From assembly GCA_014138725.1 (NCBI GenBank), contig JACJID010000010.1, positions 186,001 through 250,000 on the forward strand: DNA of 64,000 nucleotides, written 5' to 3'. Every line of letters begins with the position of its first letter. The stretch's first letter is position 1. Of the stretch, positions 27,263 to 59,391 are shown one piece after another. The stretch comes from Kutzneria viridogrisea (lineage in GTDB: Bacteria; Actinomycetota; Actinomycetes; Mycobacteriales; Pseudonocardiaceae). The notes beneath the pieces were generated by a model. It saw only the letters and a program-made list of their open reading frames with translations. It did not search any database and had not been told where the DNA came from. A program made the position numbers and the translations under genes.

Positions 27263-27299
27263 CCGGCGGCACGACCACACACCACGGGAGGTGACGACG

Positions 27300-35251: not shown

Positions 35252-35258
35252 GGCGCCA

Positions 35259-35264
35259 ACCATA
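35259..35264 (-). promoter_or_regulatory. -10 element for a leaderless siderophore-synthetase transcript
   Basis: TATGGT on the minus strand is exactly seven bases from the ATG at 35251, so transcription would start at the A of ATG. TGTTCG lies 17 bases further upstream as a weak -35. No ribosome-binding site is present between. Confidence 0.45.
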
Positions 35265-35418
35265 GGTAAGACAAGGGAAATCGAACAGGGCTGAGTAAGA
35301 GCGAGGACTGGCCGAACAGTGCCATGGCCACCCCGCGTCTCCCCCGAAACGCGCACAGGTGAGGAATCCGTCCATCACTTGATCTCGTGGCAGCGCGGCG
35401 AATCCGGGATTCCCGCCC

Positions 35419-36612
35419 TCACGCGGCGGTGACTCGTGCACCCCTCTCACCCAGCAACACCGCGGCCGCGGCGCCGACCTGTTCGCCGGGTATGAGGTAG
35501 TTGGCCGTGTGCCCGCCCGCGAAGCCGGCCAGTACCGGGATCGACGCAACCTGGAGTGCCCGCAGGCCCTCGTGCACCCGTCGTGCGCAGTCACCGTCGT
35601 CCTGGCTGACAACCGACAAGCGTGCACAGTTCGCGGTGGCACCGGTGAGCAGGTCCGAGCAGATCTCGCCCAGCCGCTCCACCCCAGCGCGGGTGAGGCA
35701 GATCAGGACCACCTCGTTCGCGGCTACGGCACTGTCCACCTCCGAGCCCAACCGCGGCAAGGCGGACAGCGCCCGCGAAGTGGGCAGCGGCGCGATCGTC
35801 AGCCCCGTCGTGCAGACCAGCGCCTGCACCCCGGTCCCGGACTCGTCGCTGAACTGGACCCCGTCGGTCACGGTCACCTCCGTTCCGCACTGCGCGCCGA
35901 CCCGTCGCACCAGCATCGGTACCCGGTGGCGCCACCCCGCGGACACGGCTCTGCCCTGCACCACCTGGTTGCCCAACGCGGCGAGCAGGCTCAGCGCCGG
36001 ATAGCTGACCCGGGTCAGCCGCCTGCCCGCGGGGAGCAGGCCCGGATCGCAGGTCAGCACACCGTTGACGTCCTTGACAATCTCCACGCGGGCGCCCAGC
36101 GCCGCCCCCACCGCGACGGCGGTCAGGTCGCTGCCGCCCCGGCCGAGCGTGATGATCTCGCCAGTGCCGTCCACGGCCTGGAAGCCCGCGACGACCGGGA
36201 TGGTGCCCGCGGCGAGGATCGTCCGCAGCCGCTGCGCGGTGGCCGCACTGACGAACGGCTCACTCCGCCGATCGGCTGCGCACAGCACGGCCTTGACCGC
36301 GGCCAGCGCGACCGCCGGCATGCCGCTGGCGGTGAGCAGGTGGGCGGTGAGCGCCGTGGCGATCGCCTCGCCGCAGGACAGCATGAGGTCACGGGTGTGT
36401 CGCGTTGGCCGGACGCCGTTCGCCAGCAACAGGTCCAGCAGCGTATCGGTGGCGTAGGCGTCACCGCGGCGTCCCATGGCCGACACCACGACCACGGGTG
36501 ACAGGCCACGGTGCACCGCCCTCGCCACGTCCTGGACCACCAGTGCGCGGCTGACCTCGTCGGCGAGCACCGTGCCGCCGAACTTCATCACCAAGGGCAG
36601 CACGGGCTTCAC
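35419..36612 (-). CDS. Aspartokinase (cluster-specific)
   Basis: This 397-residue enzyme phosphorylates aspartate, the first step to aspartate semialdehyde. Residues 9-16 read MKFGGTVL (usual KFGGTS, so the final Ser is Val); then [56 protein letters not shown] and [15 protein letters not shown], all kinase-fold signatures. The C-terminal 120 residues carry an ACT-like regulatory region ([20 protein letters not shown]). Its GTG overlaps the aminotransferase stop (GTGA), tying the two together: aspartate to aspartate semialdehyde to 2,4-diaminobutyrate. Aspartate-semialdehyde dehydrogenase is not here and would come from primary metabolism. Confidence 0.9.
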
Positions 36613-37985
36613 GGGGACCCCACGGGGCTGCTCTGTTCCACGGCCGCGATCAGGATGGCGCAGGCGGTCTCCACCACCTCGGCGGTGACGTTGAGCGGCG
36701 GCAGTATCCGGACGACGCAGTCCTCCCGGCCACCGAGCTCGACGATCAGCCCGTTGCGCAGCGCACGAGCCTGCACCCGTGCCGCCAGTGCGCCCGCCGG
36801 GCGGCCGTCGGCCGGGTCGGCGAGCTCGACACCCCACATCAGTCCGCGCCCGCGCACCTCGCGCACCCAGGGGTGCTCGCGCAGTCCCGCGAGCAGGTCG
36901 GCGATCTGCTCCCCGCGTTGCCGCACGTTGTCCAGTATCCGGTCGCGCCGGACGATGCCCACCGCCACGGTGCCCGCGGCGAACGCCAGCTGGTTGCCGC
37001 GAAAGGTCCCGGAGTGGGCGCCGGGCGCCCAGGTGTCCAGCCGCTGGTGGTACAGGATCAGCGACACCGGGGAGCCGATCCCGCTCAGCGCCTTGGACGC
37101 GACGATCACGTCGGGTTCGATGTCGTACTGCTCGAAGGCGAACCACGTGCCCGTGCGCCCGCACCCGGTCTGCACCTCGTCCACGATCAGCGGGATGCCC
37201 AGCTCGCTGGTCAGCGCGCGGACCCGCCGGACGAAGTCCCCGCGGGCGGGCACGACCCCGCCCTCGCCCTGGACCAGTTCCAGGATCACCGCGGCGGGTG
37301 AGGCGATGCCCGCGTTGCCGTCCCGCAGTGATCGTTCGAGGTAGCTGACGCAGTTGGTGGTGCAGGTGTCCCGGACCAGGTCCAGCGGGCACCGTCCGCA
37401 GTAGGAGTACGGGAAGAAGTGCACCCCGGGCAGTCCGTTGGCCACCGGGCGCTTCTGCGCGACCGACCCGGTCAGCGCCATCGCGGCGTGCGTGCTGCCG
37501 TGGAAGCTGCCCTGGAAGGCGAGCACGTCGCCCCGTCCGGTCGCGGTCTTGCAGAGCTTGACCGCGGCCTCGACCGCGTTGGCGCCGGTCGGTCCGCAGA
37601 AGTGCACCTTCATCCGGTCGCGCAGGCCCGGGGGCAGCATGGACAGCTGGGCCTCGCTGAAGGCGTCCTTGGCCGGAGTGGGGAAGTCCAGGCCGTGGGT
37701 GAGCCTGCCGAGCTGGTCGGTGACGGCCCGGACCAGCTCGGGGTGGTTGTGGCCCAGGGACAGCACGCCAGCGCCGGTGAGGAAGTCGATGAACACGTTG
37801 CCGTCGAGGTCGCGGACGAAGCTGCCCGCGGCCTCGGCGATCGCGATGGGCAGACGCCGCGGATAGGCCCGTGCGCTGGATTCCCATCGCTCCTGGCGGG
37901 CGAGCAACTCGGCCGAGCGGGGACCCGGCAGGTCGCAGGTGACGTGCGGGCCCTGTCGGGCCGCGGAGTGGTCGAGCAAGGTCAT
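36609..37985 (-). CDS. 2,4-diaminobutyrate 4-aminotransferase (class III PLP)
   Basis: This 458-residue aminotransferase of the EctB/PvdH/Dat type makes 2,4-diaminobutyrate from aspartate semialdehyde. Signatures: [79 protein letters not shown] and the PLP Lys in [12 protein letters not shown]. The [12 protein letters not shown] segment is typical of diaminobutyrate transaminases. The ATG overlaps the stop of the Pls-type synthetase (ATGA), and its end overlaps the aspartokinase start. The assignment to diaminobutyrate rather than ornithine or GABA rests on these motifs plus the aspartokinase neighbour. Confidence 0.88.
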
Positions 37986-40900
37986 GAGAGCTCCCGGGGT
38001 CGGGCCAGTGGGGCGTGTGCGATGGCTGGTGCCGGAGGCGCACCGATCTGCCTGGCCGGGTTTCCCCGCCACCTGCTGCCAGCGGCGACCTCCTCCCCCT
38101 TCATGAGGAAGGAGTCGGCGTCGAGCACGGCGCCCTCCCCCATCCTCACCGCGTAGTGGACAAGGGCGTTGATGCCCACCGTGCAGTCCGCGCCGATCGT
38201 GATGTGGTCGGATTTGAAGACGCCGTCCTCCAGCGAGTGGCCCTGGATCGTGCTGCCCTCGTTGAGAGTGCATCCCCTGCCCAGGGTGACCAGGGACCGC
38301 TCGGATATGACGCAGCCGTTGTCGAGGACACGGCCGCCCGTCCGCACTCCCTGCAACCGCAGCACCACGTTCTTGAACGTCGTGCCGTTGAGCACCCGCT
38401 GGTACTGCAACGCGCTGAACTTCCAGAACCGTTCGTGCAGCCAGTAGTAGGGATCGTAAATCGAGCAGAACCGCGGTCGGAGCTTCCGAAAGGCCATGGC
38501 CGCGCGTTCCATGAAAACGAAGTACCCGATCGTGACCACCGGGGCGACCACGATGTACAGCGCGAAGGTGGTCGGCCCGAACTCCGGGTAGAGCTCACCG
38601 GCGATCATCACCAGCAGCAGCTGCACGAGGAAATGGACCCAGTGCGCGAACAGGTAGATGCCGATGGTGGCGGCGTTGTGCCGGTTCTTCGCGGCAAGGC
38701 GGCGTCGTCGCAGCGGGCCGCCGGCCAGCTCGGTGAACCGCGCGTCGCGGCGGACCGATCGCGGTATCTCGAAGCTGGGTGATCCCAGCAGCCCGACGCC
38801 CTCGCGGGCCGGACCGTCGACCGGGACCATGACCTTCGTCGCGAACAGGCAGTTGTCGCCGGTCGTGGCGCGCGCGGGGTAGACGACGTTGGTGCCCAGG
38901 AAGCTGCGCGCCCCGATCCTGGCCCGCGACAACCGGAAGGAGCTGCTCGAGTAGTCGGCGTTGATCACCGACAGGCCGTCGGAGACCATCGTGCCGGTGC
39001 CGACGGCGACGTGGAACGGCGTCTCGTGCTTGAGCGCCAGCCCGAAGTTCGACCCCGTCTGCTCCACCACGCCCAGGTCGTACCCGAGCCAGATCAGGTA
39101 GTGCACGATGTAGGAGCTGTCGCCGAACAGGTTCATGAACGCCTGGCTGTTGGTCAGGCGCGCGATGACGCGGTGCGCCCAGTAGTGGAACCCGTAGAGC
39201 GGGTAGACCACGTCCGGGCGGAGCACCAGGTTCAGCACCTTGGGAACCGTGCCCACGAGTACGAGGCCGAGGAGCAGTGCGCCGAGGAACACCACGCCGG
39301 ACAGCACCACGGCATCCCGGTAGAGGACCCAGTTCGACAGCACCGCGGCCGGGGGGTCGGACAGCTCGGTGAAGGTCGGGAACCGCTGCACCAGCTTGAC
39401 CACGAGCCCGACGCCCAACGGCAAGTACAGGCACAGCACGCCGCACAACTGCGCCAGGCAGAACGCGATCCGCCGCACCGAGCCGCAGCCGACGGGGCCG
39501 ATCACCCGGTAGTCCACATCAGACGGTTGCGCGGGCGAGCCGTGCCAGCTCTGCCCGGCGGGCACGGTCTGGGCGGTCTGGAGCGAGGAGTTGTGCCCCA
39601 GCTGGGACCAGTCGCCGAGCGAGGTGCCCAGGTCGAGCACCGTGGCCTCGCCGACGAGCACGTGCCTGCCCAGGTGGACGGGCCCGGTGTGGATCAGCCC
39701 CGACCTCGCGCGGTAGCAGGTGAAGTAGGAGTCCTTGCGGATGACCGTGTTCGCCCCGATGGTGAGCAGGTCGGTACACACCGGCACGATCCTGGAGAAG
39801 ATCACGACCCGTGGACCGATCGTGGCGCCCAGCGCCCTGAGGTAGAGCACGTACAGGGGGGACCCGGTGAACAGCACCAGTGGACTGGAGCGGATCAGCG
39901 CCTTGACCGCCCAGAAGCGCAAGTAGGCCAGGCTCCACACCTGGATCTGCTGCGGTTTCCAGCGGCCGATGAGCAACCATTTCGCGATGATCGGCACGGC
40001 GCACAGCCCGGTGAAACCGGCCACCCCGTACTCGACCGCGCGCAGGTAGGTGGCCAGCAGTCCGTCGCCCTGGGAGATCCAGGCGTACCCCCCGACGGCG
40101 AGCAGCGCGACACCGTAGGAGTAGGCGAGGAAGAACAGGAACTGCAACGCTCCACAAAGGACGTACCTCAGCGTGCTGACGGCCGGCTCGGTGGCCGCCT
40201 GGTCGCCGGGTTCCGGGGTGGCGGGCGTGCCGGGTGGCTGTGCGGCGGCCAGGCTCCGGATGGTCGGATGCAGGTAGACCTCCCGCATCGACACCGGCAT
40301 GAGGTCCCGGTGCGCCCTTGTCCGCGCGCACAGCCGTGCCATCAGCAGCGAGTTGGCGCCGAGGTCGTCGAAGAAGTGGCTGTCCACCGACACCTGCTCG
40401 ACGCGCAGGATCTGGGCGAGTTCCGCGGCGAGGTACCGCTCGGTGTCCGTGGCCGGGGCGACGAGGTGGTGCGGCGCGGCGCCGCCGCGTTCCCCGCTGG
40501 GCGCGGGCAGCCGCTTGCGGTCGGCCTTGCCGCTGGCGAGCACGGGAATGGCGTCGAGTTCCTCCAGATAGGTGGGCACCATGTAGCCGGGCAGGTGGTC
40601 GGCCAACCACTGGCGGACCAGCCCCGGGTCGACGCGGCCCCGGCTCCTGCTGGCGGTGTAGTAGGCGACCAGTTCCGGCATCCCCGGCTCGGGCTCGTAC
40701 GTGCTGACCACCGCCTGCGCGATTCCCGGCGCCTGGGACAGCACCGACTCGATCTCGGTCAGCTCCACGCGAAAGCCCCGGATCTTCACCTGGGTGTCGA
40801 GTCGGCCGTGGTACTCCACCTCACCTTGGTCGTTGACCCGCCCCAGGTCACCGGTGCGGTAGATCCGTCCCGAGGGGTTGTTCCCGATGCCGAGGAAGTC

Positions 40901-42082
40901 CGGCACGAACGCCCGGTCGGTGAGGTCCTCGCGGTTGACGTAGCCCTCGGCAAGGCCCGGCCCGGCGATGCCGATCTCGCCCAGTTCGCCGCGGGCCAGC
41001 GCCCGGTCCTCGACCGGGTCGAGTACCACCACGGAGTAGGTGGGCAGCGGGACACCGATGGTCACCGGCCGGTTGGGGTGCAACGTGGTCCAGGTCGCGG
41101 TGACCGTGGCCTCGGTGGGACCGTAGACGTTGAGGAACCGGCGACCGGGCAGGTGCCAGCGGTTGACCAGGTCCTGTGGGCAGGCCTCGCCGGAGACCAG
41201 CAGGAACCGCAGGTCCGGGAGGTCCTCCTCCAGCGTGGCCAGCAGTGTCGGCACGCAGCACAGCGCCGTGACGCCCCTGGCGGTCAGGAACTGGTGTAGT
41301 TCGGCGCCGATCAGCGGGCCGCCACCGGGTTTGGGGACCAGGGTCGCGCCGGTCACCAACGGCACCCAGATCTCCTCCACGGAGAAGTCGAAGGCGATGG
41401 TCATGCCCTGGTAGACGCGATCCTGTGGGCGCAGCCCGTAGACCTCCGCTGCGACGCGCACGAAGTTGCAGATGCTGGCGTGCTGGATCGCCACGCCCTT
41501 GGGGCGGCCGGTGGACCCGGAGGTGTAGACGATGTAGCACAGCTCGTCGACCGGTTCGCCGCGTTCGGACTCGGTGAGGCAGCTGTCGTCCTGCTCGTCC
41601 ACGAGCCGCTGCGCCTGGTCGAGGCTGACCACCGTGCGGGTTTCGGCGCGCTCGGGCAGGTCCGCCGAGCAGAGCACCATCCGCACGCCGGCGTCCCGCA
41701 GGATGTAGGACAGCCGGTCGGGTGGGAAGCCCGGGTCGAGCGGCACGTAGGCGGCGTTGATCTTGAGCACCGCCAGCATGCCGAGGTAGCAGTGCACCGG
41801 CTGGTCGAACAGCAGGCCGATCCGGTCCCCCGGCCGGGCACCGAGGGCGAGCAGGTGCCGGGCGAGTTGGTTGGCGCGCCGGTCCAGTTGGTCGTAGGTG
41901 AGCGCCTGGCCCTCGGCGTCCACGGCCAGGCGGTCGTGGTGGCCGCTGGCGCGCAGCACCCGGCAGCGCTGCTCGAACAGGTGGTGCAGTCGTTCACCGC
42001 TTCGCCAGCGCGGTCCGCGCTCGCTTGCCGCGCCCACCAGGACCAGCTCCGCGAGCCGAGTGGTCGATTCGATCCCGGTCAC
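37982..42082 (-). CDS. Pls-type single-module NRPS, predicted poly(2,4-diaminobutyrate) synthetase
   Basis: This 1366-residue membrane enzyme has an N-terminal adenylation domain (about 20-520; core [33 protein letters not shown]), a carrier domain with phosphopantetheine Ser578 in [11 protein letters not shown], and then, instead of a condensation or thioesterase domain, a membrane region alternating with three soluble domains. These show acyltransferase-like beta-helix motifs ([59 protein letters not shown]). This is the plan of epsilon-poly-L-lysine synthetase. With diaminobutyrate genes downstream the likely product is poly-diaminobutyrate. GTG 42082 follows AAGGAGG. Confidence 0.9.
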
Positions 42083-42284: not shown

Positions 42285-43403
42285 TCAGTGCTCCAGTTCG
42301 CCCCGGATGAACCGTTCCACGGCCTGGTGTGCCTCGGCGTCGGAGTACTGCTCGGGTGGGGACTTCATGAAGTAGGAGGACGCGGACAGGATCGGGCCAC
42401 CAATACCCCGGTCGAGTGCGATCCTCGCGGCGCGGATCGCGTCGATGATGATGCCCGCGGAGTTGGGGGAGTCCCAGACCTCCAGCTTGTACTCCAGGTT
42501 CAGCGGCACGTCCCCGAACGCGCGGCCCTCCAACCGGACATAGGCCCACTTGCGGTCATCCAGCCACGCCACATAGTCCGACGGGCCGATGTGCACGTTG
42601 CGGGCACCCAGGTCCCGGTCCACCTGGGAGGTCACCGACTGGGTCTTGGAGATCTTCTTGGACTCCAACCGGTCGCGCTCGAGCATGTTCTTGAAGTCCA
42701 TGTTGCCGCCCACGTTGAGCTGCATGGTGCGGTCCAGCAGCACCCCGCGGTCCTCGAACAGCTTGGCCAGCACCCGGTGGGTGATCGTGGCACCGACCTG
42801 GGACTTGATGTCATCCCCCACGATGGGCACCCCGGCCTGCGTGAACTTGGCCGCCCATGCGGGGTCGGAGGCGATGAACACCGGCAGGGCGTTGACGAAG
42901 GCCACCTTGGCCTCCAGGGCGCACTGGGCGTAGAACCGGTCAGCGTCCTCCGAGCCCACCGGCAGGTAGGACACCAGCACCTCGGCGCCGGTCTCGCGCA
43001 GTACCCGCACCACCTCGACCGGGTCCTCGTCGGACTCCTCGATCGTCTCGCGGTAGTAGCGGCCCAGCCCGTCCAGGGTGTGCCCGCGCCGCACCGGCAC
43101 GCCCAGCGGGGGCACGTCGGCGATGGTCACGGTGTTGTTCTCGCTGGCCACGATCGCCTCGGACAGGTCCCGGCCGACCTTCTTGGCGTCCACGTCGAAC
43201 GCGGCGACGAACTCGATGTCCCGCACGTGGTAGTCACCGAACTGGACGTGCATCAGCCCGGGCACCCTGCTACCGGGCTCGGCGTCACGGTAGTAGTGCA
43301 CGCCCTGCACCAGGGACGCCGCACAGTTGCCCACGCCGACAACAGCCACCCGCACACCCCGACCGCGCCCGTGTACTTCTGGTTCTGTTCGTTGGTTTGT
43401 CAT
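42285..43403 (-). CDS. Myo-inositol-1(3)-phosphate synthase
   Basis: This 372-residue NAD-dependent enzyme converts glucose 6-phosphate to inositol 3-phosphate. The NAD motif [19 protein letters not shown] opens the protein; [60 protein letters not shown] and [20 protein letters not shown] are the actinobacterial Ino1 signatures, including the Lys-rich active site ([11 protein letters not shown]). The gene overlaps the ABC exporter gene by ATGA and follows two ATP-grasp genes, so it is part of a dedicated operon rather than an isolated housekeeping copy; whether the genome has another copy is unknown. Confidence 0.96.
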
Positions 43404-45319
43404 GTGGTCCGCACCCTGCCTTCCCGGTGAGCACTGGCGTGATCACCCAGATCCAGCTCGACCGGTTCGGTCGCGTAGCGGTTCTGCTCGGCGAGCAGCC
43501 GCGCGAACACGCCTGCCCGCGCCTTGAGTTGCCGGTAGGTCCCCCGTTCGACGATCCGGCCGCCGTCCAGCACGGCGATCTCGTCCACGTGGCCGAGCAT
43601 GGCCAGCCGGTGCGAGATCATGATCACCGTGCGGCCCTCGGTGAGCCGTTCGATCGCGCGCATCACCTCGACCTCCGCCTCGACGTCCAGGCTCGCGGTC
43701 GGCTCGTCGAGCACGAGGATGGGCGCGTCGCGCAGGATGGCCCGCGCGATCGCGATCCGTTGTCGCTGCCCGCAGGAGAAGTTGCCGCCGTGTTCGTGCA
43801 CGGGAGCGGCGTAGCCGCCGGGCAGTTCCATGATCATGTCGTGCAGGCACGCCTGGCGTGCCGCGGCGACCACTTCCTCTTCAGTGGCCCCGGGTCTGCC
43901 CAGCAGCAGGTTCTCCCGGACGCTGCCCTCGAACAGCACCGAGTCCTGTAGGACCATGCCGATGTTGCCGCGCAGGAACTCCAGCGGGTGCTCACGGGTG
44001 TCCACGCCGTCGACGGTGATCGAGCCCTGCCACGGCTCGTGCAGGCGCGCCAACAGCTTGACCATTGTGGACTTGCCGCCCCCGGACAGGCCGACCAGCG
44101 CCAGCCGGGTACCGACCGGTACCTCCAGGTCCACCCCGCGCAGCACCGGTTCGCCTGGCTGGTAACCGAAGACCACGCCCGCGAAGGCCACCTCGCCCCG
44201 CGCCCGGCCCGGCAGGACGCGAGCGGGCCCGCCCGGCAGCTGGTCCTCCCTGGGCTGGTCGAGCACTTCCTGGACCCGCTCCACCGCCGCGGCGGCGGCC
44301 GACACCTGCAACATGAGCTTGGACAGGTCGCGCATGGGTTGGTAGAGCAGCTTGGAGTAGGCCAGGAACACCGTCAGCGTCCCCACGGTCAGGCTGCCCG
44401 CCGGGATCGTGACCAGCCACAGCGTGAAGTCGTGCCCGGCGGCGACCCACGCGCCGACCACGACGATCACCGTGTTGCTCACCGTCAGCAGGAGGATGAC
44501 CAGTGGGCTGAACTCCGCCTGCCGCCGGCCCGCCCGCAGCGCGGGCCGGCGCTGCGCCTCGGCGCGCTCGGCGAACACGCGCCCGGCCCACCGCTCCAGG
44601 GTGAACACCTTGACCTCGGCGATGGCGCCGATCATCGAGGCGGCCACCTCGGCGACCCGGCCCGCGGCCCGGGCGGCCTGTTTGGACGCTCGCTTGGTGT
44701 GGTGCGTGTAGCAGGCGACGATCACGAACAGCGGTGGCACCACGCACATCGACAGCACGGTGAACTGCCAGCTGATCGCCAGCATCACCACCAGGATGCC
44801 GACCAGGGTCAGCAGCCCGGACAACAGGTCCACCAGGCCGTCGGTGACCAGCTTGCCGATGTCGGAGATGTTGCCGCTCAACCGCTGCACGACCTCCCCC
44901 AGCCGCTGCCGGCCGTGCCAGGCCAGCGGGGTGCGCACCAGGTGGTCGAAGACGCGGGTGCGCAGTGCCGCCTCCAGGTCCTGGCCGACGAAGGCGGCCA
45001 CCGACCGCCGGACGAACGCCACCAGTGCCTCGGCGGCCCCCAGGAGCAGCAACACCGTCGCGGAGGCAAGGATGACGGCGAACTGCGAGTGCCCCGGGGA
45101 CACCGGCCGCGGCCCACCGGGCGCCAGGCCGTCCAGCGCGGTGAGCAGCGGGGCGAGCGGGGGCAGTCCAGGATCACGGTCGTTGATGATCTTGTCGAGT
45201 ATCCACTTGAGCGGGAACGCGGCCAGCACGCTGCCCGCCACCCCCACGAAGGTCAGGCCGATCGCGGTCAGCACCAGCACCCGGCGCCCGCGCAGGCCGT
45301 GGAACAGGAACCCGATCAT
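43400..45319 (-). CDS. ABC exporter, fused membrane and ATPase domains (ABCB type)
   Basis: This 639-residue half-transporter has an N-terminal six-helix region (from [20 protein letters not shown] to about residue 330) and a C-terminal nucleotide-binding domain with Walker [10 protein letters not shown], signature [17 protein letters not shown] (one residue off the usual LSGGQ), Walker [13 protein letters not shown] and H-loop ISHRL. No peptidase domain precedes it. It is coupled on both sides (ATGA overlaps with the ATP-grasp-kinase fusion and with inositol-phosphate synthase), so its cargo is probably the product of that operon or the polycation made by the next one. Confidence 0.93.
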
Positions 45320-47538
45320 GCCGCACTCACCGCCCCGCTCTCGAAGCGCCGCAAGCAGTCCCATGCCACGGCCAGCGCGGCGTGCAGCGCCCGTGGCCGG
45401 GGGCTGGCGACGCGGCGGGAGTGCCGTGAGGCGATCTTGAGCAGTACGGCGGCCTCGTAGAGGTGGGCACGTCGGCGCACCTCGTCCACCTCCCCCTCGG
45501 CGAGACCGCCGGCGAGCAGGCCGTCGAGGTGCACCTCCAGGAACCGCTGCCGGGCGGCGTGGCACCACGCCCCGCTCTCCGCCTGCCGCAGCGCTCGGCC
45601 CCGTGGCCGCAGGTAGGCCAGGAAGTAGCCCTGGTCCAGCGCCGGGTCCCCCAGGCCGGTGCCATCGAAGTCGATCACCACCGGTCGAGTGGGTCCGCAG
45701 AAGACCACCTGGCTGGGCTTGAAAGCCCCGTGCACCGGGGTCCGCACAGTGCTCGGCGCGGACCGCAGCGCCTCGACCAGTGCGGAGGACAGCCGCGCCA
45801 TCTCGCCCGCGAAGCCGGGGGCGTGTCCTGCCAGCGCCGCCGCCCACCCACGTGCGCGCCGGGCGTACGTGGCACCGCACGTCAGGTCGGCCAGGCCGTC
45901 GGCAGGGCAGTCCACGTGCAGCCGGGCCAGGGCCGTGGCGCAGGCAGCCACCGCCGCCACGGCCGTCTGGGGATCCTCGCTCGCCCAGTGCGGGCTCAGC
46001 AGCTTGTTGCCGTCGACCTGGCCTTGGCGGTCAGCGCCACCAGCGGCCTCGCTCAGCACCAGGTCGAGCTCGCGCACCACCGCCAGCGGCCGGGCCACGA
46101 AGGGCATGCCCGTACACCACAACGCCTCCGCGACCCGGTGCGCCACGAGCCCCACGCCGAGGTCCCGGTACACCTTGCCGTACACGACGAGCTCGCGCAG
46201 GTCGGCGCGATCCCTTGCGGCGGCGGTGATCTGGTAGCGGATGACGCACCGCGACCCCGGCTTGTACCGGATCGGGGTCGCTCGAACGGACACCACCCGC
46301 GCGGACGGATCGTCGAGGACGAGTCGGCACGCGTCGGCCAACCGAGTGCTCAACTGGTCGCCCGGTACGGGGCCGAGCGCGGCGGGCAGACCGGGCAGTC
46401 CCTCGTCACAAGGGAAGGACCGCACGGTAAGGCCGATCGAGGGCAGTTCCACCACGGTTGGCCGCACACCTCGCACCGCCAAGGACCCGACACCGGCCAG
46501 CAGATCGGTGACCCCCGGGTCGGCGGCGGCGTGCTCGGCGAGCGAGGCCAGGAGCACTGGCCGGGACGAGCCCGCGGCATAGCTGACCACAAGCCCCTGC
46601 CCTGGCTTGCGTCGTACGCGGGACACCCGTAGCCGCACATCCGGGTCGCTGACCAGCCTGCCGACCGCGCGGTGCAGGGCGGGCAGGACGGTCGGGGCGA
46701 CTCGAGGCGGTACGACGGGCACTGTCCCCGCCCGCTGAGCACGCCGACTCGCGACCTCGTGGACCAGCGCCGCGAGGGCCTGCGCTGCTCCGGACACGCC
46801 ACGGCATCCAGGAAAGGCATTGATGTCAACGACAATCGGCCCGCGAGCGGTGAGCAGCACGTCAACCCCGTGTACCAGCAAGGAGAAGGTCTCACCGACG
46901 CGGCGGGCCAGCGCCCGCAGGCCGGACTTGAACGCCTCGTCCCCCACCGGGTGCGTCGTTGCCGGGGCATCGGGGTCAAGTCGGCTCCGGCGCCGTGCCA
47001 GGAACACCTCCTCGCCGATCGCCCACAGCTTGTAGTCCCAGCCGTCGTTGGGGAGGAACTCCTGCACCACAACGGGTTCACCGGCCCACCGCGCTTCCAG
47101 CGAGCGCAGCTGGCGGAGGTCGTCCACCTTGGCCACCAGGTCAGCGCGGCGGCTGCGCGTGCTCTTGACCACGACCGGGAACGCATGACTGGACGCCTGG
47201 CGGACGAACTCGGAAAGCCGAGTGAAGGCGTGGGTGGGCGCGAACGGCAGACCCGCCGCGGTCGCGCGCCGGGCCATGCGAAGCCGGTGCTGGCAGTTGG
47301 CGGTGCCCACGGGGTCGTTGACGACCACGCCGCCGCTGCGGCGCAGCGAGTGGCCGAGGGCCACAGCTCGCGCCGAGCGCGACTTGAGCAGGTAGACGTC
47401 GGCGAACCGGACGGGGTCGGCGAACTCGTTGGCGTGGCTGGGATCCAGCACCTCCACGGTGTCCGTGGGCGCGAGGATCTCCGCGAAGGCAGTCAGCGTC
47501 GGGTGGTCCCTGGTGTCGCTCAGTACGCAGATGTGCAT
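45316..47538 (-). CDS. ATP-grasp (ITPK-like) / APH-like kinase fusion
   Basis: This 740-residue two-domain protein starts MHICVLSDTRDHPTLTAF. Residues 1-270 are an ATP-grasp domain: FPVVVKSTRSRRADLV, VVVQEFLPNDGWDYKLWAIG (D168-K170) and VVDINAFPGCRGV (D238-N240). The DINxFPG ending and the YKLxAIG turn resemble inositol 1,3,4-trisphosphate 5/6-kinases more than RimK ligases. Residues 330-740 look like an aminoglycoside-phosphotransferase/choline-kinase fold, but the catalytic loop reads HGAFKPSQ (603-610) where HGDLHPGN is expected, losing the catalytic Asp, while VIDFDGTGLGDPALD keeps the metal Asp. Coupled to ABC exporter and one base from the second ATP-grasp gene. Substrate assignment is inference from motif and neighbouring inositol-phosphate synthase. 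Confidence 0.8.
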   Translation of the reverse strand: MHICVLSDTRDHPTLTAFAEILAPTDTVEVLDPSHANEFADPVRFADVYLLKSRSARAVALGHSLRRSGGVVVNDPVGTANCQHRLRMARRATAAGLPFAPTHAFTRLSEFVRQASSHAFPVVVKSTRSRRADLVAKVDDLRQLRSLEARWAGEPVVVQEFLPNDGWDYKLWAIGEEVFLARRRSRLDPDAPATTHPVGDEAFKSGLRALARRVGETFSLLVHGVDVLLTARGPIVVDINAFPGCRGVSGAAQALAALVHEVASRRAQRAGTVPVVPPRVAPTVLPALHRAVGRLVSDPDVRLRVSRVRRKPGQGLVVSYAAGSSRPVLLASLAEHAAADPGVTDLLAGVGSLAVRGVRPTVVELPSIGLTVRSFPCDEGLPGLPAALGPVPGDQLSTRLADACRLVLDDPSARVVSVRATPIRYKPGSRCVIRYQITAAARDRADLRELVVYGKVYRDLGVGLVAHRVAEALWCTGMPFVARPLAVVRELDLVLSEAAGGADRQGQVDGNKLLSPHWASEDPQTAVAAVAACATALARLHVDCPADGLADLTCGATYARRARGWAAALAGHAPGFAGEMARLSSALVEALRSAPSTVRTPVHGAFKPSQVVFCGPTRPVVIDFDGTGLGDPALDQGYFLAYLRPRGRALRQAESGAWCHAARQRFLEVHLDGLLAGGLAEGEVDEVRRRAHLYEAAVLLKIASRHSRRVASPRPRALHAALAVAWDCLRRFESGAVSAA

Positions 47539-47539
47539 G

Positions 47540-48400
47540 TCAGCACCCGCTCTGGGCGTTCACCGGCCGCTGCGGGACAGGTGGCAGCTCGACACGCCGC
47601 TCGGCGGCCAGCCGCAGCACCCCCCGCGCCACCCGGCCCACCGCGTCCGGGACGCAGCGGAAACTCGGGAAGTCGTTGATGTCGACCACCATCCAGCCCT
47701 CCGGCCCCTCGACCAGGTCGACCCCGAACAGGTCGAGCCCGAACACCGCGCCCACCTCGGTGACCAGTTCGGCGACGTCGTCGGCCAGCGCGATCATCTG
47801 GTCCCGGACCGGGGCGTCGGGGTGCAGCGGAGAGCGTTGGGCAGTCGCGTACAGGGTTCCGCACGCCGCGTAGACCTTGATGTCCGTGCCCGGGTTGGTG
47901 ATGTAGGGCTGGGCCAGCAGGAAACCCTCGCCGAGGACCTTTCCCCGCACCTTGGCCAGTTCCGCGCGGTCGCGCACCAGGTAGACCGAGCGGCAGGAGC
48001 TGCCGTTGGCGGGTTTGACCACCAGTGGGTAGTGCTCCAGCGGGACCTCGTAGAGCAGGTCGGGGGTGGACACGAAGTAGGTCAGCGGGAAGGGCAGGCC
48101 GTGGTGCCTGGCCACCGCCGCGGCCACCGCCTTGTCCCGCACCTTGCGGATCGCCGAGACCTTGTTGATCGTCGTCAGCCCGGCGACCGAGGCCGCCTCG
48201 AGCAGGCTCAGGCCGGGCCCGCCGGAGACCGTCTTGAGCACCCAGGCGTCGTGCTGGCTCTCCCACAGCAGTTCGGTGATCCTGGTGGCCGACCGTTCTG
48301 GTTCCAGGATGTCGACCTGGTGGCCCCAGTTGGCGATCTGTTTGGCCACGGCGATTGGCATGCTGTCGTTCCGATAGCAGTTCTCCACAATGAAGCACAT
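47540..48400 (-). CDS. ATP-grasp protein, ITPK/RimK-like
   Basis: This 286-residue cytoplasmic ATP-grasp enzyme begins MCFIVENCYRNDSMPIAVAK. ATP-binding motifs: YPLVVKPANGSSCRSVYLV, LLAQPYITNPGTDIKVYAAC (D173, K175), FGLDLFGVDLVEGPEGWM and VVDINDFPSFRCVPDA (D240-N242, the metal site). It is related to the N-terminal domain of the downstream fusion, and the pair could act in series or as a heteromer. Nearby inositol-phosphate synthase makes inositol phosphate a candidate substrate; peptide or amide ligation remains the alternative. It is the first gene of the operon; an in-frame TTG at 48406 is an alternative start. Confidence 0.8.
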   Translation of the reverse strand: MCFIVENCYRNDSMPIAVAKQIANWGHQVDILEPERSATRITELLWESQHDAWVLKTVSGGPGLSLLEAASVAGLTTINKVSAIRKVRDKAVAAAVARHHGLPFPLTYFVSTPDLLYEVPLEHYPLVVKPANGSSCRSVYLVRDRAELAKVRGKVLGEGFLLAQPYITNPGTDIKVYAACGTLYATAQRSPLHPDAPVRDQMIALADDVAELVTEVGAVFGLDLFGVDLVEGPEGWMVVDINDFPSFRCVPDAVGRVARGVLRLAAERRVELPPVPQRPVNAQSGC

Positions 48401-48715
48401 CTTCAACTCGCACTCACCCCAACCCGGTTGCCTAGGTCGAACAGGCGATGAAGCCGCACCAGAAAGGGGTGGCCGCACGCGAATCCGCGCATCAGAGAAA
48501 TGGCGATACAGGGCACCAATCGGTTTGACTCGTCATCTTCTACTGACTTTCCGATTTACACCGTCACGTCCCGGACCGCCACCGGCGAACCCATCGCCGG
48601 TAATGTTCTAGGTTACGCCCGGAAAACACGCGACAACCAGGAGGCCAACTGCCTGGCTGCAATGCGTGCGGGGCGCCGGAACAGCCCGGCGCCCCGCCTC
48701 ACTGCCCGGTGGAAC
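48401..48715. promoter_or_regulatory. Intergenic region carrying the operon promoter and an upstream terminator
   Basis: These 315 bases separate the ATP-grasp operon from the phosphatase/phytase unit. The half nearer the operon is relatively AT-rich (around 48495-48560) and must hold its promoter; the other half holds the hairpin at 48668-48697. No gene is supported. Confidence 0.55.
48668..48697 (-). terminator. Terminator of the phytase/phosphatase unit
   Basis: Perfect 12-bp stem GCGGGGCGCCGG / CCGGCGCCCCGC with a 6-base loop, 19 bases after the histidine phosphatase stop. It shows that phytase and phosphatase form a transcription unit separate from the ATP-grasp operon. Confidence 0.85.
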
Positions 48716-49339
48716 TCACGTCCTGGGCAGGTCCCCGTCCAGCAGCGCCTGCACCCGCTGGGTGAAGCCCCAGCCGGTCCCGGTGCGGGTGAACAGCCAG
48801 ACCTGGTCGAACCGGTCGCCCGACCACCTCGTCGGCGGGGCGGGTGACACCGGTCCCAGCAGCTGGCCGATGAGCGGGATCTCCCCGTGCTCCCAGCAGA
48901 TCAGTGTCGTGCCGGTCAGCCTGGCCACCTCGGCGACCAGTTCCGCCTCCTCCCCCTTGGTGTAAGTGGTGTTGACCCGGAGGCCGAGCCGGGCCGCCAG
49001 CGGGGACACCGTCTGCGCCATGCGGTGGCGCTTGCCGTCCGCGGTCGGGGCGGCCGCGTAGATCGCCGTCGGGGCGCGCAACCCGGCCCCCACACCGGTG
49101 AACAGGCCGACCAGTGCGCCCGCCCTGGACCACCCACGCGGGTTCAACGAGGAGCCGTCCTGCCTGCCGTCCGCGGTGACGCCGAAGGGCGGCCCGCTGT
49201 GCGCGGCTTTCTCACCGTGCCTGATCACCATGACGAGGTCCGCCTGGGCAGCGGCTTCGGCCGTGGCGGCGACAGGGAGAGCTGTAGCCAGGCCACCGGC
49301 CGCCAGCATCCGCATCGCGGCACGACGCGAGGCCCTCAT
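48716..49339 (-). CDS. Exported histidine-phosphatase-family protein
   Basis: This 207-residue protein has an N-terminal twin-Arg-containing signal (MRASRRAAMRMLAAGGLATA ... AEAAAQA), suggesting Tat or Sec export. The catalytic RHG motif is in LVMVIRHGEKAAHSG and the second His in ICWEHGEIPLIGQLL, the two key residues of the phosphoglycerate-mutase/phytase superfamily. The fold is the short 'SixA-like' version rather than full-length acid phytase. It overlaps the phytase gene stop by ATGA, so both are made together; a role in finishing phosphate-ester hydrolysis is plausible. Confidence 0.85.
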   Translation of the reverse strand: MRASRRAAMRMLAAGGLATALPVAATAEAAAQADLVMVIRHGEKAAHSGPPFGVTADGRQDGSSLNPRGWSRAGALVGLFTGVGAGLRAPTAIYAAAPTADGKRHRMAQTVSPLAARLGLRVNTTYTKGEEAELVAEVARLTGTTLICWEHGEIPLIGQLLGPVSPAPPTRWSGDRFDQVWLFTRTGTGWGFTQRVQALLDGDLPRT

Positions 49340-50661
49340 CGGCCCGCGGTGGTGTCGACGAGCAGCGGTGACGGGAACGATTCGGCCACGTGCTCCCAGC
49401 CGACGAACTTGAAGTCCGTGTTGTTCCGTTTCCCGCCATTGGGTGCGGCGACCTCTGGCGTGTTGTCGCCGTCGTGCACGACGAGCAATCCCTTGGGGTA
49501 TTTGTCACCGAGTGGCACACCGACGACCGCGGCACCATCGGAGTGCTCGGCCCCGTCGACGGTTTTTCCCGCGGCGACCCGGAACGAGCCAACGTAGGCA
49601 TTTCCGGGCTCACGTCGGTAGACCGCGAACGTGCTGTCCCCCTGACTGGAACAGATCAGGTAGCCGGAACCGTCCCGCCCGTAGTACAGGGTGAGGCCTT
49701 CCACGTCAGCGGAGACGTGACGGCCACCGAAACCGGGATCGCGCGGATTGACGCACTTCCCGCTCTCCGGGTCGTAGGTCTGCGAGACCCCGAATTCCCG
49801 GACCTTGTCGACCAGGACCGGCGTGTCGTCCAGCCGGGCGGACATGCGCCAGATGCCCACGTCCTCCTGCCCGGCGTAGAGCACCCCAGTCTGCGCGTCC
49901 ACGACCATGCCCTCGGCCTGGGGCCCCTCGTCCGGATCGGCGCAGGGCTGCCAGGTGGTGCCGTCGGGCAGCGTGAACCGCGCGGGCAGGTCCAGGGTGC
50001 GCACCACCTGGTAGCCGATCTTGTCCTGCTCGGCGACCAGTCGCAGCAGTGCGAGCCTGGTGCTGTGCCGCTGGGTCACCAGCACGTAGGCCGCGCCCTG
50101 CGCCCGGTCGTACCAGGCGGCCAGGCCGTAGGCGGTGTGCTGCCGGTCGACCTGGCCCTGATCAGCGGAGAAGACCAGCGGCACGTCCGGCGCGGTGAGG
50201 TCGGTCAGCGGCTTGCCGTCCTCGGACTTCCCGGCGATCCGGTAGATCCGGACCTGGTCCAGGCCCCGGTCGGAGACGATGGCGAGGTCCTGCTCCCCGG
50301 CACCGAGGGCGACTCCCTGGAGCACGTCGACGTTGTTGAACCGGCTCGGCTTGCGCGCCGAGGCGGGCGCGGCCGGGGTGGGGATGTGCTGCACGAGCTC
50401 GCCGGACAGCCGGTAGGCGTACAGGCCGCCCTGTTTCGCGGTACCGATCACGAGGCTGCGTTCGCCACGGTCCCGGTCCACCCAGATCCCGATGTCGTCC
50501 GCATCGGCGTACCCGCCCCTACGGTCGTTGAACAGGGCGGGGGTCTCGGCCTCGGCCGAAATGGAAGGAATCGCGGTCGGGTTGTCGTTCGGAGCGGCGA
50601 TCGGGGGTGTCCCGATGCCCAGTAATGCCACGGTGAGCCAAGCGAGGGGTGTGTTTCGCAT
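49336..50661 (-). CDS. Secreted beta-propeller phytase
   Basis: This 441-residue extracellular enzyme hydrolyses inositol hexakisphosphate and lower phosphates, using calcium. A Sec signal peptide (MRNTPLAWLTVALLGIGTPP) follows an AGGAGG site. Beta-propeller-phytase motifs are clear: DADDIGIWVDRDRGERSLVI, GTAKQGGLYAYRLSGELVQH, FNNVDVLQGVALG, DLAIVSDRGLDQVRIYRI, DEGPQAEGMVVDAQTGVLYA, DVEGLTLYYGRDGSGYLICS and SSQGDSTFAVYRREP. It is co-translated with the histidine phosphatase. Beta-propeller phytases usually scavenge phosphate; here the neighbouring inositol-phosphate synthase and ITPK-like genes raise a pathway-specific role. Confidence 0.95.
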   Translation of the reverse strand: MRNTPLAWLTVALLGIGTPPIAAPNDNPTAIPSISAEAETPALFNDRRGGYADADDIGIWVDRDRGERSLVIGTAKQGGLYAYRLSGELVQHIPTPAAPASARKPSRFNNVDVLQGVALGAGEQDLAIVSDRGLDQVRIYRIAGKSEDGKPLTDLTAPDVPLVFSADQGQVDRQHTAYGLAAWYDRAQGAAYVLVTQRHSTRLALLRLVAEQDKIGYQVVRTLDLPARFTLPDGTTWQPCADPDEGPQAEGMVVDAQTGVLYAGQEDVGIWRMSARLDDTPVLVDKVREFGVSQTYDPESGKCVNPRDPGFGGRHVSADVEGLTLYYGRDGSGYLICSSQGDSTFAVYRREPGNAYVGSFRVAAGKTVDGAEHSDGAAVVGVPLGDKYPKGLLVVHDGDNTPEVAAPNGGKRNNTDFKFVGWEHVAESFPSPLLVDTTAGR

Positions 50662-57117: not shown

Positions 57118-59391
57118 TCACGAGGTGCTCGGCGAACCGGGCGTGAGGCTGAAGTAGCCCTGCTCCTCCTGAGCGAAGTGCAGGGCCAGCACGGCGCCGA
57201 GACCGTAGAGCGTCGCGCGCAGGTCGTCGACCTGGCTTGGTTCGAGGTGCCCGGCTGACAGGTGCCGGGCAAGCCTGCGCACGAGGCGCTCGATCTCGGC
57301 GTGCCCGCGGCTCATGGTCGTGGTGGTCTCGGCGGTGCCGAACAGTTCGCCCAGCGCGGGGTACAGCTCGTGCTCCTCGGCGCGTTCGTGTGGCAGCAAG
57401 TGGTCCACGAGCAACTGGTACGCCCGCCGGACCTGGACCTCGGCCTGCTCGGTGGGCCCGTCCGACAGCGAGTCGGCCGCACTGCGCACGGCCGAGAGCA
57501 CCGGCATCAGCAGCCGGTGTTCCTCGGCGAAACGCCGCAGCAACTCCTGGTCGCGCTGACCGAGGCGCACGGCCTTGGCAGGCAGCACGGCACGCAGGCT
57601 GTTGAGGATCACGGCCACGTCGATGACCTCCTGCACGAGGGCACCGACAACCGGGGCCAGCACACCGAACGCGGCCAGCCCCATGGCGAGCACGGACAGC
57701 CCGAGCCCCGCGCCCGCGCTCTGCACCGCGATCCGGCGGGCCCGCGCAGCCGTCTCGACCGCCCCGGCCAGCGGATCGATCCGGTCGCTGAGCACCACGG
57801 CGTCAGCGGCCTGGGCCGCCGCGGTCGCGCCCCGTGCGCCCAGTGCCACACCGACATCGGCCGCGGCGAGCGCCGGTGCGTCGTTGAGGCCGTCGCCGAC
57901 CACCACGGTCACGCCGCGGCGGCGTTCGGCCTCGACTCGACGCACCTTGCTCGCGGGCGTGCAGTCGGCCCGCACCTCGTCCAGACCGAGCAGACCGCCG
58001 ACCTCGGCCGCGGCACCGGCGCGGTCGCCGGTCAGCAGCACGATGCGCCGCAGGCCCACCGCCCGCAGCCGGCGCAGCGTGCGGGCGGCGTCCGGCCTGA
58101 TCTCGTCCCGGGCGAGCAGGGCCGCGACGGGCTCGCCGTCGACCGTGACCCAGATCGGTGTGGCGCCGTCGAGTTGGGCGCGCCGCAGTGCCGAGGCCGC
58201 CCACCCGGTCGCGGGCTCCTCGGTCCACGGTGGCTTGCCCACGGTGACAACCGCGCCGTCGACGATGCCGGTGACGCCCGTACCGGGTTCCTCGCGGACG
58301 TCGACGGCCGGTGTGCCGCCCAGTGACCGCGCGGCCCGCACGACCGCCCCCGCGAGGACGTGGGACGACAACAACTCCACGGAGCCCGCCATGCGCAGCA
58401 CCACCTCGCGGTCCCAGCCCGGCGAGGTGAGGACCTCGGTCACCGAGGGCGCGCCCGCGGTGACGGTGCCGGTCTTGTCCAGCACCGCGATCTCGGCCCG
58501 GCCCAACGCCTCCAGCGCGCGGCCGTCACGCACCACCACGCCCTGCCTGCTGGCGCGGGACATGCCCGCGGTCACGGCGATCGGCACGGCCAGCAGCAGC
58601 GGGCAGGGCGTGGCGGTCACCAGCACGGCGACCGCGCGGACCGGATCACCGGTCACCAGCCACGCCAGCCCGGCGACCGCCACCGCGAACGGCAGGAAGG
58701 CGGCCGCGAACCGGTCGGCCAACCGCGCGACCGGCGCACCGCGTGCCGCTGCCGCACCCGCCAGCCGCACGACACCCGCGTAGGTGCTCTCGGCGGCGGG
58801 TCTGCTCGCGACAAGGTCCACGGCGCCACCGGCGTTGACCACACCGCTGCTGACCTGCTCGCCCGCCGCACGGTCCACGGGCAGCGGCTCACCGGTCAGC
58901 GCCGACTCGTCGAACGTGCCGGTCCCCACCAGGCAGCCGTCCACCGGCACGACCTCGCCGGGCAGCACGACCACCCGGTCACCGGCCGCCACGCGGTCCA
59001 CGTCCACCGCAACCAGGTCCCCACCGACCCTGCGCCTGGTCCGCGCCGGTGACCGGTCCAGCAGCGCGGTCAGGTCGTGACCGGCGCGCCGCTCGGCACC
59101 GGACTCCAGGACCCGGCCGGTCGCGAGCATCACGCCGATCACCGCACCAGCGAGGTGTTCACCGACCAGCAGCGTGCCGCCCAGCGCCAGCACCGCGAGC
59201 ACGTCCGCGCCCATGCGGCCCGCGCGCAGGTCCGCCGCCGCCCACCAGACGGCGGGCAGCAGGGCCGCCACCGCTCCGGCGGCCCACGCCACCTCGGCCG
59301 ACGGGGACCCGGCAGCCCACAGGACGCCGCCGCCGACAGCCGCGGCGAGGGTCAGCGCCAGCAGCACCCAGGCGAGGCGTTCCGGTCGCAT
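57118..59391 (-). CDS. P1B-5-type metal-transport ATPase with C-terminal hemerythrin domain
   Basis: This 757-residue pump has about eight membrane helices. It shows TGEPLPV in the actuator domain, DKTGTVTAG phosphorylation Asp, GDGLNDAPAL hinge, and in the metal-site helix ATPCPLLLAVPIAV, i.e. TPC instead of the CPC of Cu/Zn pumps. The motif LVQEVIDVAVILNSLRA (QExxD) and a C-terminal hemerythrin-like domain (about 600-757, His/Glu-rich: HLLPHERAEEHELYPALGEL, MSRGHAEIERLVRRLARHL, LHFAQEEQGYF) complete the P1B-5 pattern, reported to export nickel/iron. The ATG after GGAGG lies 11 bases from the stress-protein stop. Confidence 0.9.
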   Translation of the reverse strand: MRPERLAWVLLALTLAAAVGGGVLWAAGSPSAEVAWAAGAVAALLPAVWWAAADLRAGRMGADVLAVLALGGTLLVGEHLAGAVIGVMLATGRVLESGAERRAGHDLTALLDRSPARTRRRVGGDLVAVDVDRVAAGDRVVVLPGEVVPVDGCLVGTGTFDESALTGEPLPVDRAAGEQVSSGVVNAGGAVDLVASRPAAESTYAGVVRLAGAAAARGAPVARLADRFAAAFLPFAVAVAGLAWLVTGDPVRAVAVLVTATPCPLLLAVPIAVTAGMSRASRQGVVVRDGRALEALGRAEIAVLDKTGTVTAGAPSVTEVLTSPGWDREVVLRMAGSVELLSSHVLAGAVVRAARSLGGTPAVDVREEPGTGVTGIVDGAVVTVGKPPWTEEPATGWAASALRRAQLDGATPIWVTVDGEPVAALLARDEIRPDAARTLRRLRAVGLRRIVLLTGDRAGAAAEVGGLLGLDEVRADCTPASKVRRVEAERRRGVTVVVGDGLNDAPALAAADVGVALGARGATAAAQAADAVVLSDRIDPLAGAVETAARARRIAVQSAGAGLGLSVLAMGLAAFGVLAPVVGALVQEVIDVAVILNSLRAVLPAKAVRLGQRDQELLRRFAEEHRLLMPVLSAVRSAADSLSDGPTEQAEVQVRRAYQLLVDHLLPHERAEEHELYPALGELFGTAETTTTMSRGHAEIERLVRRLARHLSAGHLEPSQVDDLRATLYGLGAVLALHFAQEEQGYFSLTPGSPSTS

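What the first reader, a model, noticed from the sequence alone, without database searches (positions are those of the whole stretch)
42285..50661. Inositol-polyphosphate locus: synthase, two ITPK-like ATP-grasps, exporter, phytase and phosphatase
Inositol-phosphate synthase sits in one coupled operon with two ATP-grasp proteins whose metal motifs (DINDFPSF, DINAFPGC) and YKLWAIG/IKVYAACG turns resemble inositol trisphosphate 5/6-kinases, plus an ABC exporter. Directly upstream are a secreted beta-propeller phytase and histidine phosphatase. Bacterial synthesis of inositol polyphosphates is hardly documented, so a build-export-degrade set is unusual. Motifs are seen; the pathway is inferred.
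Basis: partly seen in the sequence, partly recalled or inferred. Interest (0 to 1): 0.85.

Follow-up and report, generated by a model that had tools for sequence, protein, structure and literature searches.

The report
Bacterial inositol-phosphate operon with kinase-like ATP-grasps
A bacterium, probably an actinobacterium, carries a four-gene operon that appears to make inositol phosphate, modify it (most likely by adding phosphates) with two enzymes whose active sites resemble the inositol-phosphate kinases of eukaryotes, and export the product; if confirmed, bacteria too build inositol polyphosphates.

Summary
The genes and motifs are real. The operon is four coupled minus-strand genes: ATP-grasp 1, an ATP-grasp fused to an APH-like domain (the fusion was missed), an ABC exporter and inositol-3-phosphate synthase (INO1). 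The phytase/phosphatase pair lies 309 bp upstream as its own unit and was found beside no related locus. A second full block exists in this genome; in two genomes of another family the ATP-grasps stand 1.1-1.3 kb from INO1. Of 15 two-ATP-grasp loci, 4 have INO1 within 5 kb, 4 lack it with both sides visible, and 7 are cut by contig ends. Six distant operons pair two or three related ATP-grasps with a mannitol-1-phosphate-dehydrogenase-like enzyme, so different hexitol-phosphate makers recur beside the same kind of enzyme. By overall sequence the window proteins are closer to RimK/LysX amide ligases than to ITPK. At diagnostic active-site positions 41 of 41 relatives read as ITPK does (D-x-K, D-x-N/S-x-F-P), not as RimK does (DIR, EVN). 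Best reading: a new ATP-grasp family acting on polyol monophosphates, most likely as kinases, feeding an exporter.

The parts
47540..48406 (-). ATP-grasp 1 ('GRASP1', ~287 aa; TTG start 48406 or ATG 48400); ATP-grasp residues K129, D173-x-K175, D228, D240-x-N242 present (numbering from ATG 48400)
   Evidence: RimK 28.6 bits, Ins134_P3_kin 18.0 bits, below its cutoff 23
45316..47538 (-). ATP-grasp 2 fused to an APH-like domain ('GRASP_APH', 740 aa): ATP-grasp residues 1-270, APH-like residues ~310-735 with HGAFKPSQ in place of the canonical HGDxxxxN (canonical motif recalled)
   Evidence: RimK 36.1 bits, Ins134_P3_kin 28.6 bits (cutoff 23), APH 37.7 bits
43400..45319 (-). ABC exporter (639 aa, MsbA-like half-transporter with its own ATPase)
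   Evidence: best NCBIfam TIGR02203 376.8 bits, below its cutoff 602
42285..43403 (-). INO1, inositol-3-phosphate synthase (372 aa), last gene of the operon; about 98% identical in DNA to two further copies in the genome
42238..42256 (-). terminator-like hairpin between INO1 and the next same-strand gene (consensus match only; weak)
   Evidence: 7 such sites found in the region, mean 2.8 in shuffles
48716..49339 (-). histidine-phosphatase-like protein (RHGEK; secreted by eye), coupled to the phytase; probably not part of the conserved system
49336..50661 (-). beta-propeller phytase (secreted by eye); the only phytase found in this genome, not found beside the ATP-grasps elsewhere

Best explanation
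The operon 42285-48406 encodes a small pathway. INO1 turns glucose-6-phosphate into inositol-3-phosphate (shown by family membership). Two ATP-grasp enzymes then modify the INO1 product, most likely by transferring phosphate from ATP to ring hydroxyls, giving an inositol bis- or polyphosphate (inferred). The APH-like domain lacks the usual catalytic Asp and probably assists rather than catalyses (inferred). The MsbA-like ABC protein exports the product (inferred). The ATP-grasps form a bacterial family that sits between RimK-type ligases and eukaryotic ITPKs. Its distant members stand beside a mannitol-1-phosphate-dehydrogenase-like enzyme in place of INO1, so the general module would be: hexitol-phosphate synthase + 2-3 ATP-grasp polyol-phosphate kinases + exporter. 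The phytase/phosphatase pair is a neighbour, not a conserved part.
For: Coupled operon, gaps 1, -4, -4 bp. Same four genes in the same order at C1 of this genome. INO1 1.1-1.3 kb from GRASP1-GRASP2-APH in G186 and G951, in a different arrangement, with a GDPD gene between. Six of 7 distant loci carry a mannitol-1-phosphate-dehydrogenase-like gene beside 2-3 ATP-grasps, and 5 of 7 an MFS transporter. The only scaffold-making enzyme in the operon makes a polyol phosphate without a carboxylate. Active-site signature: D-x-K and D-x-[NS]-x-F-P in 41 of 41, N-x3-4-GG in 0 of 41 (one row was mis-parsed by the pattern and read by eye). Printed ITPK segments of man, maize and Entamoeba read K and DxNxFP; the five printed RimK/LysX-type chains read DIR, EVN and N..GG. 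Ins134_P3_kin exceeds RimK for L046:6503-7342 (50.7 against 47.4) and L031:8950-9774 (38.0 against 27.3), 2 of the 6 ATP-grasps given to Pfam; the best solved structure for L031:8950-9774 is maize ITPK1 (E 5.7e-6; best ligase 2.6e-5). All 5 RimK-model hits of the genome at E<=0.001 are these proteins.
Against: The window's own two proteins, used singly, find amide-ligase-type ATP-grasps and no ITPK at E<=0.01, and profiles score RimK-type above ITPK: 114 against 72 bits, 67 against 46, 73 against 40, 60 against 54 in the core. In Pfam, RimK exceeds the ITPK model in 4 of 6. In block scores the nearest reference is an ITPK for only 13 of 41. INO1 is within 5 kb in 4 of 15 two-ATP-grasp loci; 4 lack it with both sides visible, and in 7 more none is seen in the part not cut off by a contig end. 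PF05770 did not list G000 at E<=1e-5. No structure could be predicted. The INO1 copies are far more alike than the rest of the blocks, so the linkage could be recent.
Confidence: 0.5

Rival explanations
1. The ATP-grasps are amide or ester ligases of RimK/LysX type. They activate an amino acid and attach it to inositol phosphate (ester) or build a small peptide; INO1 supplies the polyol part and the ABC protein exports a natural product.
For: Highest overall similarity is to RimK/LysX. The downstream same-strand group is natural-product-like (Pls-type NRPS, diaminobutyrate aminotransferase, aspartokinase, NIS synthetase).
Against: RimK/LysX signature residues (DIR, EVN, N..GG) are absent in all 41 relatives. 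No small ORF (20-150 aa) within 800 bp upstream of GRASP1 is shared between lineages, so there is no sign of a precursor peptide (11 of the 15 loci examined). The C1 block lacks the NRPS/NIS neighbours. The scaffold made in the operon has no carboxylate.
Confidence: 0.3
2. The INO1 copies are only extra housekeeping supply (mycothiol, phosphatidylinositol). The ATP-grasp/APH/ABC set does something unrelated and INO1 came in by a recent duplication.
For: INO1 copies are about 98-99% identical in DNA (dS 0.03-0.07) while ABC and ATP-grasp genes of the two blocks have dS 0.40-0.74. Four of 15 two-ATP-grasp loci lack INO1 within 5 kb with both sides visible, and 7 more show none in the visible part.
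Against: INO1 occupies the same place in two diverged blocks and is separately linked in G186 and G951. The differences between the window copy and the C5 copy cluster at the gene ends, as expected if an old INO1 is being homogenised by gene conversion. Distant operons carry another hexitol-phosphate enzyme instead.
Confidence: 0.15
3. One reading: a build-export-degrade locus in which the upstream phytase and phosphatase recycle the exported inositol polyphosphate.
For: Adjacent and same strand; the one phytase found in the genome is placed exactly here.
Against: Separated by 309 bp, a coupled pair on its own, and found beside no other ATP-grasp locus. Beta-propeller phytases are ordinary phosphate-scavenging enzymes of soil bacteria (general knowledge).
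Confidence: 0.05

Closest known systems
RimK / LysX-type carboxylate-amine ligases (PF08443, TIGR00768)
   Same: ATP-grasp family with the best overall scores; ATP-binding Lys, Asp and Asn of the metal site
   Different: DIR replaced by D-x-K, EVN by D-x-N, N-x3-GG loop absent, Phe before the Pro; all below the TIGR00768 cutoff
Inositol tris/tetrakisphosphate kinase, ITPK (PF05770)
   Same: Lys of the YK/FK-V-F/Y turn, an R-R-S-like stretch after it in many close relatives, D-[IV]-N-x-F-P metal motif; linkage to INO1 fits a lipid-independent route
   Different: Lower overall score than RimK for the window proteins; bacterial, paired and in an export operon; no activity known
PPIP5K/VIH inositol-pyrophosphate kinases
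   Same: Also found by the profile over the same core (40 bits)
   Different: Weaker match than RimK or ITPK; no phosphatase domain fused. Their active-site letters were not printed by any search, so not compared
APH / LxmK-like phosphotransferases
   Same: PF01636 over its cutoff; weak LxmK match in the G951 homologue, 34.1 bits against a cutoff of 315
   Different: H-G-[AS]-[FY]-K-x-[SG]-Q in 11 of 11 examined (catalytic Asp missing), DFD or DLD kept

Membership tests
ITPK (PF05770) | Curated Pfam score over the gathering cutoff (23 bits) | tested here: inconclusive
   4 of the 6 ATP-grasps given to Pfam are over the cutoff: GRASP_APH 28.6, L046:3575-4477 37.7, L046:6503-7342 50.7, L031:8950-9774 38.0; not GRASP1 18.0 or L046:5700-6506 20.5. 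RimK scores higher in 4 of 6
ITPK (PF05770) | Active-site signature: Lys in the turn and D-x-N-x-F-P | tested here: met
   41 of 41 D-x-K and D-x-[NS]-x-F-P (Ser in one row), compared with printed ITPK segments
ITPK (PF05770) | Nearest solved structures by sequence are ITPKs | tested here: not met
   Window proteins hit no ITPK at E<=0.01; L046:6503-7342 has RimK first; met only for L031:8950-9774, narrowly
ITPK (PF05770) | Phosphorylates inositol phosphates | not testable with these tools
   needs purified enzyme
RimK family ligase (TIGR00768) | Score over the curated cutoff (143.4 bits) | tested here: not met
   GRASP1 92.2, GRASP_APH 40.4, G951 GRASP2 61.7, G951 GRASP1 92.6, L046:6503-7342 86.3 bits: 0 of 5
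RimK family ligase (TIGR00768) | DIR, EVN and N-x3-GG residues (as printed for five RimK/LysX-type chains) | tested here: not met
   0 of 41 with N-x3-4-GG; Lys for Arg and Asp for Glu throughout
Inositol-3-phosphate synthase (TIGR03450) | Equivalog score over cutoff (638) | tested here: met
   687.2 bits
Beta-propeller phytase (PF02333) | Score over gathering cutoff (21) | tested here: met
   176.5 bits
APH phosphotransferase (PF01636) | Catalytic H-G-D motif (recalled) | tested here: not met
   H-G-[AS]-[FY]-K in 11 of 11, although the PF01636 score is over its cutoff

The most novel reading that the evidence does not exclude
Bacteria have a sporadic but far-flung export module for polyphosphorylated hexitols: a hexitol-phosphate synthase (INO1 or a mannitol-1-phosphate-dehydrogenase relative), two or three dedicated ATP-grasp kinases, and an exporter. 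Its ATP-grasps are the bacterial sister group, perhaps the source, of the eukaryotic and Asgard inositol-phosphate kinases ITPK and PPIP5K.
Probability: 0.3. Interest if true: 0.88.

Novelty: new variant of a known kind. Interest (0 to 1): 0.68.

Why it matters
Synthesis of inositol polyphosphates is treated as a mainly eukaryotic trait. [quoted passage not shown] A bacterial INO1 operon with ITPK-signature ATP-grasps makes the question of bacterial inositol polyphosphates directly testable with four genes, and offers a possible bacterial root for ITPK. The mannitol-1-phosphate-dehydrogenase operons would extend ATP-grasp kinase chemistry to other polyol phosphates. If the ATP-grasps turn out to be ligases, the operon would still be, as far as I could find, an undescribed inositol-phosphate natural-product pathway.

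Tried and rejected
Structure prediction: not available. RiPP reading: 98 small ORFs upstream of GRASP1 in 11 of the 15 loci; protein matches only among the related genomes G186/G951/G976/G980 and G079/G153, plus a 22-bp DNA match of L045 with G951 and G980. Phytase as a conserved partner: rejected. NRPS/NIS group downstream as part of the system: rejected, because its likely start near 42082 (read) leaves about 200 bp with a terminator-like hairpin and the C1 block lacks these genes. Control of the E/D position in other ATP-grasps of the genome: only 2 of 7 PF13535 loci gave a readable motif, both E; too few to count. Block scoring against printed PDB segments: nearest reference an ITPK in 13 of 41, a RimK/LysX-type chain in 28 of 41, so similarity alone does not decide. 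PF05770 scan of 396 genomes listed only 3, all distant-type loci, not G000.

Literature: the listings show no title or abstract start on bacterial inositol-polyphosphate kinases (searches list only 15 of 20, 15 of 27 and 15 of 67 papers); others (six exact phrases) returned 0 papers; (phytate and siderophores) was listed only and not used. The library holds only CC0, CC BY and CC BY-SA papers. Papers: PMC8024741, PMC7614388 and PMC10765375, passages only; PMC10897400, passages and Introduction; all others, search listings only. PMC6900528 was not held.
Full report
What is there. The window lies in a 10.2-Mb genome (G000:C10:186001-250000). On the minus strand four genes follow one another with gaps of 1, -4 and -4 bp: ATP-grasp 1 (GRASP1, 47540-48406), an ATP-grasp fused to an APH-like domain (GRASP_APH, 45316-47538), an MsbA-like ABC exporter (43400-45319) and inositol-3-phosphate synthase (INO1, 42285-43403). 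Upstream, 309 bp away, is a second coupled pair: a beta-propeller phytase and a histidine-phosphatase-like protein. Downstream a separate same-strand group starts near 42082: a Pls-type NRPS, a diaminobutyrate aminotransferase, an aspartokinase and a tandem NIS siderophore synthetase.

Recurrence. The genome holds three INO1 genes and three GRASP_APH genes. One of the latter, at C1, lies in the same four-gene block GRASP1 - GRASP_APH - ABC - INO1; the third stands alone at C10:272043. The family is sporadic: a match to GRASP_APH or a part of it in 7 of 298 genomes of the order, to GRASP1 in 6 of 396 of the phylum, four of these being distant relatives, and in 1 of 297 of the family, the window's own genome, all at E<=1e-20. 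In another family of the order, 7 of 112 genomes match its GRASP2, six closely (77-100%) and one at 32%. There, in G186 and G951, the order is PadR - INO1 - GDPD (divergent) - GRASP1 - GRASP2 - APH, with GRASP2 and APH as separate genes.

INO1 linkage counted. Of 15 loci with both ATP-grasps, INO1 is within 5 kb in 4 (window, C1, G186, G951). It is absent with at least 5 kb visible on both sides in 4 (L023, L025, L045, G079). In 7 a contig end cuts the 5-kb span (L024, G933, G976, G202, G107, G980, G153), and none is seen in what is visible; G980 and G153 show 4.7 and 12 kb upstream without it. In G976 and G933 an INO1 lies on the same contig, about 15 and 18 kb away. With 1-3 INO1 genes in 3-10 Mb, a 10-kb neighbourhood would hold INO1 in well under 1% of loci by chance (arithmetic, not a test). 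The two arrangements differ, so I read them as two separate associations.

A parallel set. Seven more distant loci (L046-L050, L077, L078) come from five genomes listed as same phylum only (G526 twice, G323, G407, G559, G496) would be six loci, plus G959 of the same order. Six of the 7 loci carry two or three related ATP-grasps beside a gene of the mannitol-1-phosphate 5-dehydrogenase family (for L046: PF08125 92.6 bits, best NCBIfam 154.9 bits against a cutoff of 356), and 5 of 7 an MFS transporter. L078 has one ATP-grasp and neither. INO1 makes a hexitol phosphate from glucose-6-phosphate, and mannitol-1-phosphate dehydrogenase makes one from fructose-6-phosphate (established knowledge). The same kind of ATP-grasp beside two unrelated hexitol-phosphate makers, mostly with a transporter, is the strongest hint that the substrate is a polyol phosphate. 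Caveat: the mannitol dehydrogenase family also holds uronate reductases, whose products do have a carboxylate.

Kinase or ligase. Overall similarity favours RimK/LysX: the window proteins used singly hit amide-ligase-type ATP-grasps and no ITPK among solved structures at E<=0.01, and profiles score RimK-type above ITPK by 6 to 42 bits. The relative L046:6503-7342 also has RimK first. The relative L031:8950-9774 has maize ITPK1 first (E 5.7e-6), with an S6-modification-type ligase at 2.6e-5. The Pfam ITPK model passes its cutoff in 4 of 6 proteins and beats RimK in 2 of 6. At the active site the picture reverses. All 41 relatives have Lys where the five printed RimK/LysX-type chains have Arg (DIR), Asp where they have Glu (EVN), and Phe before the Pro; none has the N-x3-4-GG loop (one row by eye). 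Printed ITPK segments of man, maize and Entamoeba share the Lys and the D-x-N-x-F-P. In a block comparison the family scores 83-112 on average against ITPKs, more than RimK itself does (60-84), but 99-114 against RimKs; its nearest reference is an ITPK in only 13 of 41. So it is a family of its own between the two, with ITPK-like catalytic residues.

The APH-like domain. Eleven of 11 homologues examined read H-G-[AS]-[FY]-K-x-[SG]-Q instead of the canonical H-G-D motif (recalled), while the later DFD or DLD is kept. I therefore do not count it as a working kinase.

INO1 copies. The three INO1 genes of G000 are 97.8-98.9% identical in DNA (dS 0.03-0.07). The ABC, GRASP1 and GRASP_APH genes of the two blocks have dS 0.40, 0.53 and 0.74. 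Between the window copy and the C5 copy, 17 of 23 differences lie in the first 100 or the last 168 aligned bases. Either INO1 joined both blocks recently, or old copies are kept alike by gene conversion; dN/dS near 0.1 suggests that the copies are kept functional.

The phytase. It is the only phytase found in G000. Of 16 genomes searched, 4 have a phytase (G000, G186, G202, G638), and only in the window is it beside the ATP-grasps. It is an ordinary scavenging enzyme placed next door, or a local addition.

Literature. In the texts I could see, ATP-grasp inositol-phosphate kinases are reported from eukaryotes and Lokiarchaeota (PMC8024741 passages; PMC10897400 Introduction). My searches for bacterial ones listed none, in a library that holds only openly licensed papers.

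Verdict. The biosynthesis-and-export part of the reading is plausible, with INO1 linkage shown and kinase chemistry inferred. The degradation part is not supported.

Noticed in passing
31307-42082: Minus-strand group: tandem IucA/IucC NIS siderophore synthetase with FhuF-like domains, aspartokinase, diaminobutyrate aminotransferase and a Pls/PosA-type single-module NRPS; looks like a diaminobutyrate-based siderophore or poly-diaminobutyrate cluster.
   Followed up: partly
26066-30117: Ferritin-like protein, LodA-type lysine epsilon-oxidase and a flavoprotein of the tryptophan-halogenase family (LodB-like by position only): probably an amino-acid oxidase set.
   Followed up: no
57118-59367: P-type ATPase with a C-terminal hemerythrin domain (PF00122 + PF01814 in one 749-aa frame).
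   Followed up: no
L026:8607-9677, L028:8777-9847, window 42285-43403: Three INO1 genes almost identical in DNA inside otherwise diverged surroundings: a possible case of ongoing gene conversion between operon and housekeeping copies.
   Followed up: partly
L074:11782-15228; also L073:1459-4932 and L076:8231-11785: Near the ATP-grasps in G933, G951 and G976: ~1150-aa proteins with an ABC exporter first and a long C-terminal part with local similarity to the APH-like domain; in L074 it keeps HGDFDPSQ. Pfam sees no APH in the L073 one.
   Followed up: partly
L031:6740-7504, L073:12060-12836, L075:3560-4414, L076:191-973, L032:6024-6827, L034:6945-7679: A glycerophosphodiester phosphodiesterase gene recurs near GRASP1-GRASP2-APH in two families; it might release inositol phosphate from a lipid headgroup.
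   Followed up: partly
L052:11992-12858: Nocardia plasmid NZ_CP109567.1 carries a lone GRASP1 relative (47%) near DISARM genes, an integrase and protein phosphatase/kinase genes.
   Followed up: no
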